The notes below the pieces were generated by a model. The model saw only the letters and a list, made by a program, of their open reading frames with translations. It was not told the origin of the DNA and did not search any database. From Ulvibacter litoralis (GTDB lineage Bacteria; Bacteroidota; Bacteroidia; Flavobacteriales; Flavobacteriaceae): a stretch of 64,000 nucleotides of DNA. This document shows, in pieces, positions 12,292 through 15,186 of this stretch. Every line of letters begins with the position of its first letter. The stretch's first letter is position 1. Location: the NCBI RefSeq assembly GCF_900102055.1, contig NZ_FNBA01000006.1, positions 1-64,000 on the forward strand. The letters run 5' to 3'. The position numbers were made by a program, and so were the translations under genes.

Positions 12292-13227
12292 TTGGCCAAC
12301 GATTCCTATCTAGAAGTAGCAGCCCAAAAACTAAGGAGCAAGAACATTAACGAACAAAAAAAAACTAAATATCAAGCCTTAATCATAATGACCTCTATGT
12401 CTATAGGTCTTGCATCGATCGCCAAGGTATGTGGTTGTTTTGACTTAAAACGTGATGCTTATTATAAGTATCAACGAAGAGAAACAAAACGAAAACTATT
12501 TGAAGATCAAATTACACATATCGTAAAAAAAATCGACGCAAGCCTTACCTAGAGAAGGTGTTCGGGAAATGATGGTTTCCCTAGACAAGGAGTTTAAACA
12601 ACAAAAGATCAAAGTAGGCCGGGATACACTATTTAAAGTCCTTAGAGGACATAAAATGCTGACCCTTCGGAAAAAATACAGTGTAAAAACCAACAATTCA
12701 CACCATAGGTTTTATAAGTATGACAATATTATAAAGGACATGGAAATCAATAGACCAAATCAAGTTTGGGCATCAGATATAACCTATATCAGAACCTTAA
12801 ATGGTTTTTGTTATCTCACGCTTATTACTAACATGTATTCAAGGAAAAGCGTTGGATACGGCCTCAGTGACAGCTTAGAGCTAAAAGGATGCGTAAGAGC
12901 TCTTAAAAAGGCCATCTATCAAGCTAAAGATGTGAAAGGACTTATTCATCTTTCCGATAGAGGAATACAATATTTTAGTAATGTATACACCTATGTATTT
13001 TAAAAATAAAAATCAGCATGACACAAGAGAACCATTGCTATGAAAATGCGCTGGCTGAACGTGTAAATGAAATCCTAAAGGACGAATTTTATCTCGATCA
13101 CATCTTTATGGACACTAACCACGCCAAGATAGCTGCCAAAAATGCAATTAAATTATACAATGAAGTAAGATTACATTTATCTTTGGATTACAAAACACCA
13201 GGTATGGTATATAAATTAACAGCGTAA
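12292..13227 (+). pseudogene. IS3-family transposase OrfB, frameshifted
   Basis: Three successive frames together cover an IS3 transposase. 12292-12552 carries the helical DNA-binding part. 12569-13003 carries the start of the rve integrase core, with the first catalytic Asp in VWASDITYIRT and the second in HLSDRGIQY. 13018-13227 carries the end, with the catalytic Glu in NALAERVNEILKDEF and the LYNEVRLHLSLDYKTPGMVY terminal motif. Frame changes occur near 12550 and near 12990-13017, where a one-base shift separates GIQYFSN from the MTQENHCYENA motif. No functional transposase can be made without two frameshifts. Confidence 0.85.
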
Positions 13228-13245
13228 ATTCAATTTTAACCTGAA

Positions 13246-13266
13246 GCTATATTTCAGGACTAGACA
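13246..13266 (+). repeat. Right terminal inverted repeat of the IS3 remnant
   Basis: The sequence reads TGTCTAGTCCTGAAATATAGC on the minus strand and ends in TG..., as do many IS3-family ends. It lies just downstream of the transposase stop. The left partner was not found. Confidence 0.55.
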
Positions 13267-13335
13267 GCTTAACAGCCGAATCGTTATGAAATAGGGTGTA
13301 AGAAAATTAACTAAATTTGCAATCAAAAGATAGTA

Positions 13336-14175
13336 ATGGAAGACAAAATAGTTTTACACCTTTCCGATAGTTTCCACACTAATTTTTCAGGAATAAAAAG
13401 ATTGTTTGAATTTTATAAGTTAGCATCCGAATATTACAACGACACCATATATATTGATTTCTACCATTTGATTTGGTTTGATGCAAATTTAAGCGCTTTA
13501 TTTGGCAGCATTTTAGCTAAATTAAATAACGAGAACAACCTTTCGTTCTCAACAGATTTAAACTTTTTGCAAGAACATTTTGACGTTTTATTTAGAAATG
13601 GTTTTCTCCGTTCAAAAAGTGCACTAGATGATGAACAAAAATCTACTGTTTCATTTAGAAGTTTTAAACCTGACGATAAAGATGGGTTTATTGGTTACAT
13701 AGAAAATGATTTATTATCTCATAGAGGAATGCCCAATTTTACAGAGAAAGAAAAAGACGATATCATAGAATCGTTAATCGAAGTTTTTTGCAATATTCAA
13801 ATTCACTCTAAATCTGAAGAACCCTTTTATGTTTGTGGTCAGTATTATCCAAAGCAAGGTTTCTTAACGTTTTCAATGGTTGATTTAGGAGTGGGATTTC
13901 TTCCTGCAATAGAAAATAAAACAAAAGGAAAAATTGATAACAGTTATGACGCAATAAAATGGGCTCTTGAAAAGAAGAATACAACAAAGGGAAAACCTGG
14001 CGGATTAGGTTTATATAATTTAAATTCTTACTTTAACAGAACAAATGGTAATTTTCAAATTATATCTGGAGATACATTTTGGAGTTTAGAGTTAGAGACT
14101 ACAGTCATGAAAAAGTTTCATTTTCCAAATCCATATGTAGGATCTATATTAAATTTGTTTTTCAATTACCAATAA
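13336..14175 (+). CDS. GHKL (HATPase_c-type) ATP-binding protein of a three-gene operon
   Basis: The 279-residue protein has the Bergerat-fold motifs of GHKL ATPases. The N box is IIESLIEVFCNIQIHSK (about 145-161, with E, N and H), the G1 box is DLGVGF (about 183-188), and the G2 box is GGLGLYNLNSYF (about 222-233). The first 130 residues are an unfamiliar domain that could be a STAS-like or dimerisation module (IDFYHLIWFDANLSALFG). It has no histidine kinase phosphoacceptor domain and no membrane segment. The next gene encodes a DUF4325 STAS-like protein, as is common for such ATPases, and a PIN nuclease follows. I infer a small regulatory or defence module, not a two-component system. Confidence 0.78.
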   Translation: MEDKIVLHLSDSFHTNFSGIKRLFEFYKLASEYYNDTIYIDFYHLIWFDANLSALFGSILAKLNNENNLSFSTDLNFLQEHFDVLFRNGFLRSKSALDDEQKSTVSFRSFKPDDKDGFIGYIENDLLSHRGMPNFTEKEKDDIIESLIEVFCNIQIHSKSEEPFYVCGQYYPKQGFLTFSMVDLGVGFLPAIENKTKGKIDNSYDAIKWALEKKNTTKGKPGGLGLYNLNSYFNRTNGNFQIISGDTFWSLELETTVMKKFHFPNPYVGSILNLFFNYQ

Positions 14176-14177
14176 TG

Positions 14178-14208
14178 TATCTTTGCACGCACGTATTTCG
14201 TGTGCAAA
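14178..14208 (+). promoter_or_regulatory. Flavobacterial promoter element with overlapping hairpin
   Basis: TATCTTTG at 14178-14185 matches the Bacteroidota -7 element TAnnTTTG. It overlaps an interrupted inverted repeat: TTTGCAC (14182-14188) and ACG (14191-14193) pair with CGT and GTGCAAA (14199-14208) around a 5-base loop. This sits between the ATPase stop and the DUF4325 start, so the DUF4325-PIN pair may be transcribed separately and be controlled by a protein binding the palindrome. Confidence 0.5.
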
Positions 14209-14223
14209 ATAAATCCATACCCT

Positions 14224-14547
14224 ATGAATATCAGTGTTTTAGATATTATTAAATCAGATTTAGCGACAAATCTTACTGATGGTACGGCTCTTTTTGAAGT
14301 TATCAAAGCATATAGTCCTTCAGAAATTGTAATATCATTTTTGGGTATAAGACGTATTTCATCCTTATTTCTCAATGAAAGTATTGGCCAATATGCATTG
14401 CTTAACTCTTTGAATATTCAAGAATTAAAATTTGAATATCCAGAGGATAAAGAAATGTTTGCATACAAAGTAAAAGACGTAATTGAAAATGCCTTGTTAG
14501 GTGATGAATATGACCACTTTGTAGATAATGCTCTTCATTCAATGTAG
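14224..14547 (+). CDS. DUF4325 STAS-like protein
   Basis: From the ATG at 14224 the product is 107 residues (MNISVLDIIKSDLATNLTDGTALFEVI). It follows the pattern of DUF4325, a STAS-like domain: a strand VISFLGIRRISSLFLNESIGQ in the centre, where STAS domains carry the functional loop, and a final helical part. DUF4325 proteins usually lie beside GHKL ATPases, as here, which recalls SpoIIAA/SpoIIAB-type partner switching. The following PIN gene begins 6 bases after the stop, so the two are translationally linked. The earlier in-frame start at 14200 overlaps the hairpin and is less likely. Confidence 0.72.
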   Translation: MNISVLDIIKSDLATNLTDGTALFEVIKAYSPSEIVISFLGIRRISSLFLNESIGQYALLNSLNIQELKFEYPEDKEMFAYKVKDVIENALLGDEYDHFVDNALHSM

Positions 14548-14553
14548 AAACAT

Positions 14554-15186
14554 ATGTCTTATTCATATTCTAAGGCATCATCCCATTCTGTAAAAGATCA
14601 AGAAAAATATTTTCTAGATGCTAATATTTGGTTAAAAGTATTAGCACCTAAAAATAAATTACTATACAAAGATAAAGCATACTTAGGTTTTTTTGAAAAA
14701 TTAGTCAATAATACAAAGGTGCGTATCATTTTGCCTGCATTAGTAGTTTCTGAGGTAATTAATAGGATTATTAGAGAAGTACATTATCAAAAACACATTA
14801 GAAACGTTCAGAAAGTTACATCAGGATTTGTTCCGTCGAGCGATTACTATAAAAATGTATTTAGAAATACAGAAGATTATAAAAAAGCTTATAATCTTAT
14901 ATGTGATGATATTAAGAGTTACAATACCTCTATTGATTTGATTAATGATGAATTTGGCTCTACCTTCAAGTTCAAGCATGTAATGTCTAATCCGCCAACT
15001 AGTCTCGATTTCAATGATAATTATTACTATAAATTGTGTAAATCTAAAGGATATTTCTTCGTTACTGATGATAAAGATTTTTGGGTAGAGGATGTTGAAG
15101 TAGTCACAATGAGTGATACTCTTCTTAATAAACATATTGCTACGCTAATTCCAAACCCCTCAGGGAAAAAAAAAGCTATAAAATAG
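14554..15186 (+). CDS. PIN-domain protein
   Basis: The 210-residue protein begins with 18 variable residues and then YFLDANIWLKVL, in which Asp22 is the first PIN acidic residue. The second is in VVSEVINR (about 66-73), and the others are likely D in SLDFNDNYYYKL (about 150-160) and TDDKDF (about 170-175). This is a complete set of acidic residues for an Mg-dependent RNase. It is larger than VapC toxins, which have about 130 residues. It is the last gene of the GHKL-DUF4325-PIN operon and is followed by an attC-like site at 15262. The nuclease is probably the effector, with the ATPase and STAS-like protein as control. Confidence 0.75.
   Translation: MSYSYSKASSHSVKDQEKYFLDANIWLKVLAPKNKLLYKDKAYLGFFEKLVNNTKVRIILPALVVSEVINRIIREVHYQKHIRNVQKVTSGFVPSSDYYKNVFRNTEDYKKAYNLICDDIKSYNTSIDLINDEFGSTFKFKHVMSNPPTSLDFNDNYYYKLCKSKGYFFVTDDKDFWVEDVEVVTMSDTLLNKHIATLIPNPSGKKKAIK

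What the first reader, a model, noticed from the sequence alone, without database searches (positions are those of the whole stretch)
13336..15186. GHKL ATPase - DUF4325 (STAS-like) - PIN nuclease operon
The ATPase motifs, the STAS-like partner and a complete PIN active site occur in one tight operon. Known: GHKL proteins and STAS proteins form partner-switching pairs (SpoIIAB/SpoIIAA type), and DUF4325 lies next to GHKL ATPases. Inference: a ribonuclease is here placed under partner-switch control, which would be a different toxin-control logic from classical toxin-antitoxin pairs. An internal promoter with a palindrome (14178-14208) precedes DUF4325-PIN.
Basis: partly seen in the sequence, partly recalled or inferred. 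Interest (0 to 1): 0.65.

Follow-up and report, generated by a model that had tools for sequence, protein, structure and literature searches.

The report
VapKSC kinase-controlled toxin-antitoxin operon
Three neighbouring bacterial genes form a VapKSC-type antiviral switch, in which a kinase is thought to release an RNA-cutting toxin from its guard protein when DNA is damaged; this type of system was described in 2026, so the copy here is a new member of a known kind.

Summary
At 13336-15186 (+) lie a GHKL ATPase, a DUF4325 STAS-like protein and a PIN nuclease, with all motifs intact. The trio is a conserved unit: 73 of 80 ATPase loci from named genomes carry all three genes in this order, across several phyla; it also occurs on a plasmid and a prophage-like contig. 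[quoted passage not shown]), in which kinase VapK phosphorylates antitoxin VapS, which lets go of RNase VapC. The crystallised Escherichia VapS and VapC (PDB 9Z7O) are the best PDB matches of the family profiles. The window copy keeps the phospho-acceptor serine (S47) and all PIN catalytic residues, and its three genes show purifying selection. The palindrome is real but not conserved. By-product: in three flavobacteria VapK-VapS sits behind an anti-phage dCTP deaminase instead of VapC, and VapS there lacks the C-terminal tail that inhibits VapC. This apparent effector swap was not found in the papers searched.

The parts
13336..14175 (+). vapK: predicted STAS-GHKL kinase, 279 aa; N box E149/N153/H157, G1 D183/G185, G2 GG222-223 and G225; aromatic W47 at the presumed ssDNA-contact position
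   Evidence: models
14224..14547 (+). vapS: DUF4325 STAS-like antitoxin, 107 aa; phospho-acceptor S47 (= Escherichia VapS S48); C-terminal tail residues 92-107
   Evidence: PF14213; Escherichia VapS 9z7o_A
14554..15186 (+). vapC: PIN-domain ribonuclease toxin, 210 aa; D22 = Escherichia VapC D28
   Evidence: PF01850/PF16289; 9z7o_C through the family profile; catalytic residues
13312..13319 (+). TAnnTTTG promoter-like element upstream of vapK (weak evidence: motif at chance frequency in the window)
   Evidence: that TAnnTTTG is a Bacteroidota -7 element is recalled
14178..14185 (+). TAnnTTTG promoter-like element between vapK and vapS (weak evidence)
   Evidence: TAtaTTTA in L103 and TAaaTTTG in L104 near the same place
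14182..14208 (+). imperfect palindrome/hairpin, 9-bp stem, not conserved in relatives
13153..13266 (+). 3' end of an IS3-family element, shared with L103 upstream of vapK (second copy elsewhere in L103)

Best explanation
The locus is a vapKSC operon, a phosphorylation-controlled toxin-antitoxin system with a probable anti-phage role. In resting cells VapS (DUF4325) binds VapC (PIN RNase) through its STAS face and C-terminal tail and keeps it inactive. When single-stranded DNA builds up after DNA damage or phage infection, VapK (STAS-GHKL kinase) is activated and phosphorylates VapS at S47. VapS then releases VapC, which cleaves RNA and arrests growth. Shown here: gene content, order, conserved catalytic and phospho-acceptor residues, homology to the crystallised VapS and VapC, purifying selection, co-inheritance. 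Shown by others on the Escherichia homologue: VapC toxicity, VapS antitoxin activity and its loss with S48E or without the C-terminus, phage protection, and the VapS-VapC structure. Inferred for this copy: kinase activity, ssDNA as trigger, RNA target, phage defence.
For: Trio in 73 of 80 ATPase loci found without using VapS or VapC. Profiles made without the window recover its three genes. 9z7o VapS (E 5e-22) and VapC (E 1e-11) are the best PDB hits of the VapS and VapC profiles, and the window VapS alone finds 9z7o_A first at E 0.0025. The 9z7o VapS fragment matches DUF4325 at E 1.5e-17. Ser/Thr at the S48 column in 78 of 78. dN/dS against L103 is 0.03, 0.11 and 0.08 for K, S and C. The three distance matrices correlate at r 0.88-0.92 over 73 trios. 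The L064 model matches VapC (Z 12.6) and SpoIIAB (Z 11.3). Published function: PMC13373217 section 13.
Against: Nothing found contradicts it. Weak points: the window belongs to a divergent branch (18-32% identity to the other trios aligned), its VapK lacks the C-terminal tail of most family members and its VapS has a deletion. The window VapC alone gives no PDB hit to 9z7o_C. The aromatic W47 is equated with VapK F54 only by position, since no Escherichia VapK sequence was obtained. The published work did not show VapK kinase activity directly, because VapK was insoluble.
Confidence: 0.88

Rival explanations
1. True partner switching as in SpoIIAB-SpoIIAA-sigma: the ATPase itself binds and holds the PIN protein, and dephosphorylated DUF4325 frees it by taking its place.
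For: The GHKL domain is closest to SpoIIAB in fold, and the genes sit together.
Against: In the Escherichia homologue VapS itself binds and inhibits VapC in a 2:2 crystal complex, and VapS alone neutralises VapC. VapS has a C-terminal tail in 78 of 78 trios that is shortened in the three loci without VapC.
Confidence: 0.05
2. The trio is a transcriptional regulator of neighbouring genes, as CapK-CapS is, with the palindrome at 14182-14208 as operator and the PIN gene incidental.
For: Palindrome and promoter-like motif between vapK and vapS. CapK-CapS regulates operons.
Against: VapS lacks the wHTH domain of CapS (107 aa, DUF4325 only). The palindrome is absent in L103 and L104. PIN is conserved with the pair.
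Confidence: 0.03
3. A decayed or chance cluster behind an IS3 remnant, not a functional unit.
For: IS3 pieces directly upstream, divergent VapS, and patchy distribution (VapC in 4 of 397 family genomes, none in the two other genomes of the genus).
Against: All three genes are open, keep the catalytic residues and have dN/dS well below 1 against L103. The same trio is found in many phyla.
Confidence: 0.02

Closest known systems
VapKSC of Escherichia sp. E4736 (PMC13373217; PDB 9Z7O)
   Same: Gene order K-S-C, STAS-GHKL kinase without HTH, DUF4325/STAS antitoxin with Ser/Thr phospho-acceptor and C-terminal tail, PIN toxin with the same catalytic residues
   Different: The window is a distant branch: VapK lacks the family's C-terminal tail, VapS has an internal deletion, VapC is 210 aa with a C-terminal extension, and there is a 48-nt gap with a hairpin between vapK and vapS
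CapK-CapS (PMC13373217)
   Same: STAS-GHKL kinase acting on a STAS partner
   Different: CapK has an N-terminal HTH and CapS a C-terminal winged HTH; output is transcription, not a toxin
SpoIIAB-SpoIIAA / RsbW-RsbV partner switch
   Same: GHKL serine kinase fold (Z 11.3 to SpoIIAB) and STAS partner with the phospho-acceptor at the matching place
   Different: No sigma factor; the released partner is a PIN RNase; the kinase carries its own STAS-like N-terminal domain
Classical VapBC
   Same: VapC-type PIN toxin fold (Z 12.6 to VapC)
   Different: Antitoxin is a DUF4325 protein rather than a DNA-binding VapB, and a third gene, a kinase, is added
Anti-phage dCTP deaminase (NCBIfam NF041025, PADLOC dCTPase)
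   Same: Effector next to VapK-VapS in L021-L023 only
   Different: Not present at the window locus; a homologue elsewhere in the window's genome has no VapK-VapS beside it

Membership tests
VapKSC | Three genes in order vapK-vapS-vapC on one strand, tightly spaced | tested here: met
   13336-14175, 14224-14547, 14554-15186, gaps 48 and 6 nt
VapKSC | VapK GHKL kinase domain with intact catalytic motifs, no N-terminal HTH | tested here: met
   E149, N153, H157, D183, G185, GG-G conserved in 76-78 of 78; SpoIIAB fold match of the L064 model; the 279-aa protein starts directly in the first predicted domain, with no room for an HTH
VapKSC | VapK N-terminal STAS domain | tested here: inconclusive
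   The models show alternating strands and helices of a STAS-like order at residues 2-77 (L064) and 5-81 (window), but the fold search barely tested that part
VapKSC | VapS homologous to crystallised Escherichia VapS | tested here: met
   9z7o_A: profile E 5.4e-22, window protein alone E 0.0025; both are DUF4325
VapKSC | Ser/Thr phospho-acceptor of VapS (S48) | tested here: met
   Window S47; column has T 59, S 19 of 78; register set by the 9z7o_A alignment, with the 18-residue construct offset inferred
VapKSC | VapS C-terminal inhibitory region | tested here: met
   16 residues after position 91 in the window and 16-23 in the 78 trios; helix 391-402 in the window model, low confidence. Inhibition itself not tested
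VapKSC | VapC PIN active site (D28 and partners) | tested here: met
   D22 aligns with D28 of 9z7o_C (counted on the printed alignment); D22, N24, E67, D152, D155, D173, D175 conserved
VapKSC | Aromatic ssDNA-contact residue of VapK (F54) | tested here: inconclusive
   W47 column is W 45, F 30 of 78, but no Escherichia VapK sequence was obtained to prove it is the same position
VapKSC | VapC toxic, VapS neutralises, VapK phosphorylates VapS, phage protection | not testable with these tools
   Needs bench work; published for the Escherichia operon except direct VapK kinase activity
CapK-CapS | C-terminal winged HTH on the STAS partner | tested here: not met
   VapS is 107 aa with DUF4325 only and a short tail
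Classical VapBC | Antitoxin is a VapB-type DNA-binding protein | tested here: not met
   The gene before the PIN gene is DUF4325 and matches Escherichia VapS
SpoIIAB-SpoIIAA-sigma partner switch | Sigma factor as third partner in the operon | tested here: not met
   Third gene is a PIN nuclease; no sigma factor among the listed neighbours (by reading)

The most novel reading that the evidence does not exclude
VapK-VapS is a portable phospho-switch cassette that can be wired to different immune effectors. Besides the PIN RNase VapC it is coupled in some flavobacteria (L021-L023) to an anti-phage dCTP deaminase, with VapS having lost the VapC-inhibiting tail, so that ssDNA-activated phosphorylation would turn on nucleotide depletion instead of RNA cleavage. 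More distant kinase-DUF4325 pairs directly behind a type I restriction HsdR gene (L155) may be a further wiring.
Probability: 0.45. Interest if true: 0.62.

Novelty: new member of a known kind. Interest (0 to 1): 0.38.

Why it matters
It places a flavobacterial copy in the newly described VapKSC family and shows that Pfam DUF4325, a domain of unknown function, contains the VapS antitoxin. The side result, the same kinase-STAS pair joined to a dCTP deaminase in place of VapC, would make the modularity claimed for these regulators directly testable: one damage sensor, exchangeable killing or depletion outputs.

Tried and rejected
Internal promoter/palindrome as a conserved operator: the hairpin is unusual in the window (0 of 200 shuffles fold as well) but absent in L103 and L104, and TAnnTTTG is at chance frequency. 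An earlier L103 fold used the wrong stretch and was replaced. The gap-free repeat finder did not report the palindrome.

Defence-library hits of the window proteins are weak and were not used: DrmA E 0.00057 for VapK, HEC-01B E 0.026 for VapS, none for VapC. NCBIfam gave nothing useful for the trio. No phage record matched VapC.

More deaminase-linked copies were sought in viral contigs with VapK and deaminase alignments: none. Plasmid deaminases (7 records) were not examined for a VapK neighbour. A class-wide genome search gave 245 of 395 genomes, but nearly all listed matches are short deaminase-domain matches; of the two matches over most of the query (L122, L123), neither showed VapK-VapS in the flanks read.

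An Escherichia VapK sequence to anchor F54 was sought through VapS in plasmids and phages: only Deinococcus and one unannotated phage record.

The fold models gave domain folds only. No coordinates or inter-domain error were available, so the modelled VapS-VapC contact could not be compared with 9Z7O, and 9Z7O did not appear among the 50 rows listed for either model. Rows left out of counts: 4 duplicate trios and 5 broken or truncated trios left out of the distance correlation; the permutations there do not control for shared ancestry. dN/dS is NG86, and dS for vapK is saturated (3.1).

Papers: of PMC13373217 I read the abstract, found passages and sections 11-14 and 17, not the whole text, figures or datasets. 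All other papers were seen only as search listings. That the deaminase link is not in print rests only.

Full report
Three + strand ORFs lie at 13336-14175, 14224-14547 and 14554-15186, separated by 48 and 6 nt. Pfam gives DUF4325 for the second (26.8 bits, cut-off 23) and PIN for the third (24.3 bits, cut-off 23.6); the first is below every cut-off (HATPase_c_2, E 0.12). DUF4325 occurs once in the window's genome.

Conservation was tested with the ATPase only, so that the presence of the other two genes was not built in. In 395 genomes of the order, 11 had a match at E <= 0.001. The window and five others (L003-L007) carry all three genes; L009, L010 and L011 carry an ATPase and DUF4325 but no PIN hit in the stretch held; L008/L013 (one genome) hold broken pieces; L012 gave no hit to any of the three profiles. 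A plasmid search found one record, Deinococcus gobiensis plasmid P5, annotated ATP-binding, STAS-like and PIN protein in a row. A scan of named genomes found 107 relatives, of which the best 80 were kept. Of these 80, 73 have the three genes in order; seven do not: L021, L022, L023 (ATPase and DUF4325 complete, no PIN), L054, L059 and L085 (contig ends) and L055 (truncated ATPase). Some of the 73 have a truncated or split gene (for example L067, L080, L086). Record titles include Bacteroidota, Spirochaetota, Chlorobiota, Pseudomonadota, Campylobacterota, Fibrobacterota, Candidatus Brocadia and Cryosericum, and a Methanosarcinales MAG (phylum names partly recalled). In viral contigs 4 loci matched: L018 has the trio between a primosomal-type gene and terminase genes, L016 has it near a ParA gene and a phage-type repressor, and L015 and L017 run off the stretch held.

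Residues were counted on 78 unique trios (82 less 4 duplicates). The GHKL N box E149, N153, H157, the G1 box D183, G185 and the G2 glycines are kept in 76-78 of 78, and PIN D22, N24, E67, D152, D155, D173, D175 in 75-77 of 78. A position in VapS is Ser or Thr in 78 of 78, and an aromatic column in the ATPase is W or F in 75 of 78. Profiles built without the window find exactly these three ORFs among 397 window ORFs (E 8e-65, 1.2e-11, 2.4e-31).

Identity: a literature search led to PMC13373217 (Chambers, Rani, Min, Villa, Corbett, EMBO J, June 2026), of which I read the abstract, found passages and sections 11-14 and 17. It names a three-gene operon vapKSC: VapK, a STAS-GHKL kinase; VapS, a STAS protein with a short C-terminal region; VapC, a PIN toxin. 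It reports 289 instances, a VapS2-VapC2 crystal structure, VapC toxicity, neutralisation by VapS, loss of neutralisation with S48E or without residues 94-116, and about 2-log protection against phage Bas42. Their VapS and VapC (PDB 9z7o) are the top PDB hits of my DUF4325 and PIN alignments (E 5.4e-22 and 1.1e-11), and the window DUF4325 protein alone finds 9z7o_A first (E 0.0025). The printed 9z7o VapS fragment matches DUF4325 at E 1.5e-17. Counting along the alignment, the Ser/Thr column (window S47) is VapS S48 if the construct carries 18 extra residues, which fits its 134 residues against a native end at 116 (inference). Counting along, window D22 is VapC D28.

The window copy is a divergent but maintained member. 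Its closest relative is L103 (another genus of the family; VapK 85%, VapS 75%, VapC 82% identical), with dN/dS 0.027, 0.114 and 0.076 (NG86; vapK dS saturated). L104 also has the trio; L105 has only a VapC remnant. VapC occurs in 4 of 397 genomes of the family and in neither of the two other genomes of the genus, so the operon is patchy. Homology between window and L103 runs from 13153 to 15155, that is from the end of an IS3-family element through most of vapC, and that IS end has a second copy in L103, which suggests transfer together with the insertion element (inference). The three distance matrices correlate at 0.92, 0.88 and 0.90 over 73 trios, above all of 1000 permutations, which do not remove shared ancestry.

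Models: the L064 trio read through its stops folds at mean pLDDT 90.9, pTM 0.68, with VIA-align matches to VapC (3zvk_C, Z 12.6, rmsd 3.0, 125 aligned) and SpoIIAB (1thn_A, Z 11.3, rmsd 2.4, 129 aligned). The window trio folds at 83.0, pTM 0.55; its Foldseek list is headed by SpoIIAB (1th8_A, E 2.1e-3), with no match at E <= 0.001. pTM values below 0.7 and the lack of coordinates mean that the arrangement of the three proteins is not established by these models.

It may be a local feature and is not part of the family.

Side result: the three complete VapK-VapS pairs that lack VapC without being cut by a contig end (Dokdonia, Mesoflavibacter, Tenacibaculum) all lie directly behind a 678-684 aa protein that matches PADLOC dCTPase (E 1.3e-114 to 9.3e-120) and NCBIfam anti-phage dCTP deaminase (293-308 bits, under the 400-bit cut-off), with gaps of 27 and 18 nt and one overlap (coordinates). 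Their VapS proteins are 102-104 aa and end about 10 residues before the tails of the 78 trios, the region whose deletion abolishes inhibition of VapC in the published system. VapK and VapS among the three show dN/dS of roughly 0.08-0.19 where dS could be computed. This looks like an effector swap. It is three loci only; the deaminase homologue in the window's own genome (44% identical) has no VapK-VapS next to it. PMC13373217 does not contain 'deaminase' or 'dCTP' in its main text, and searches for dCTP deaminase with STAS or GHKL gave no paper on such a link as judged from the listings. A more distant kinase-DUF4325 pair directly follows an HsdR gene in L155; L114 and L116 look alike by eye but were not tested.

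The novelty is not in the window but in the related loci, where the same switch appears joined to another effector.

Noticed in passing
L021 3907-7186, L022 3922-7193, L023 3969-7195: VapK-VapS directly downstream of an anti-phage dCTP deaminase, no VapC; VapS lacks the C-terminal tail present in the 78 VapC-linked trios. Possible effector swap.
   Followed up: partly
L155 4655-9173 (also L114, L116): A distant GHKL-DUF4325 pair directly follows a type I restriction HsdR gene (Pfam confirmed in L155 only).
   Followed up: partly
window 13336-14172: Window VapK matches PHROG 3364 (unknown function, E 2.3e-35), so VapK-like proteins are carried by phages.
   Followed up: no
L018 4911-6720: Complete vapKSC lies between a primosomal-type gene and terminase genes on a viral contig, probably prophage cargo.
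   Followed up: partly
window 12292-13266: IS3-family transposase pieces and IS end directly upstream of vapK; the same IS end lies upstream of vapK in L103, with another copy nearby.
   Followed up: partly
L122 1501-3483 (window's genome, contig 38): A full-length dCTP deaminase homologue next to a helicase-type (restriction-like) gene and another gene in the window's own genome, without VapK-VapS.
   Followed up: no
L123 1468-3773: A dCTP deaminase homologue with a small neighbour downstream and a larger gene upstream whose families were not tested.
   Followed up: no
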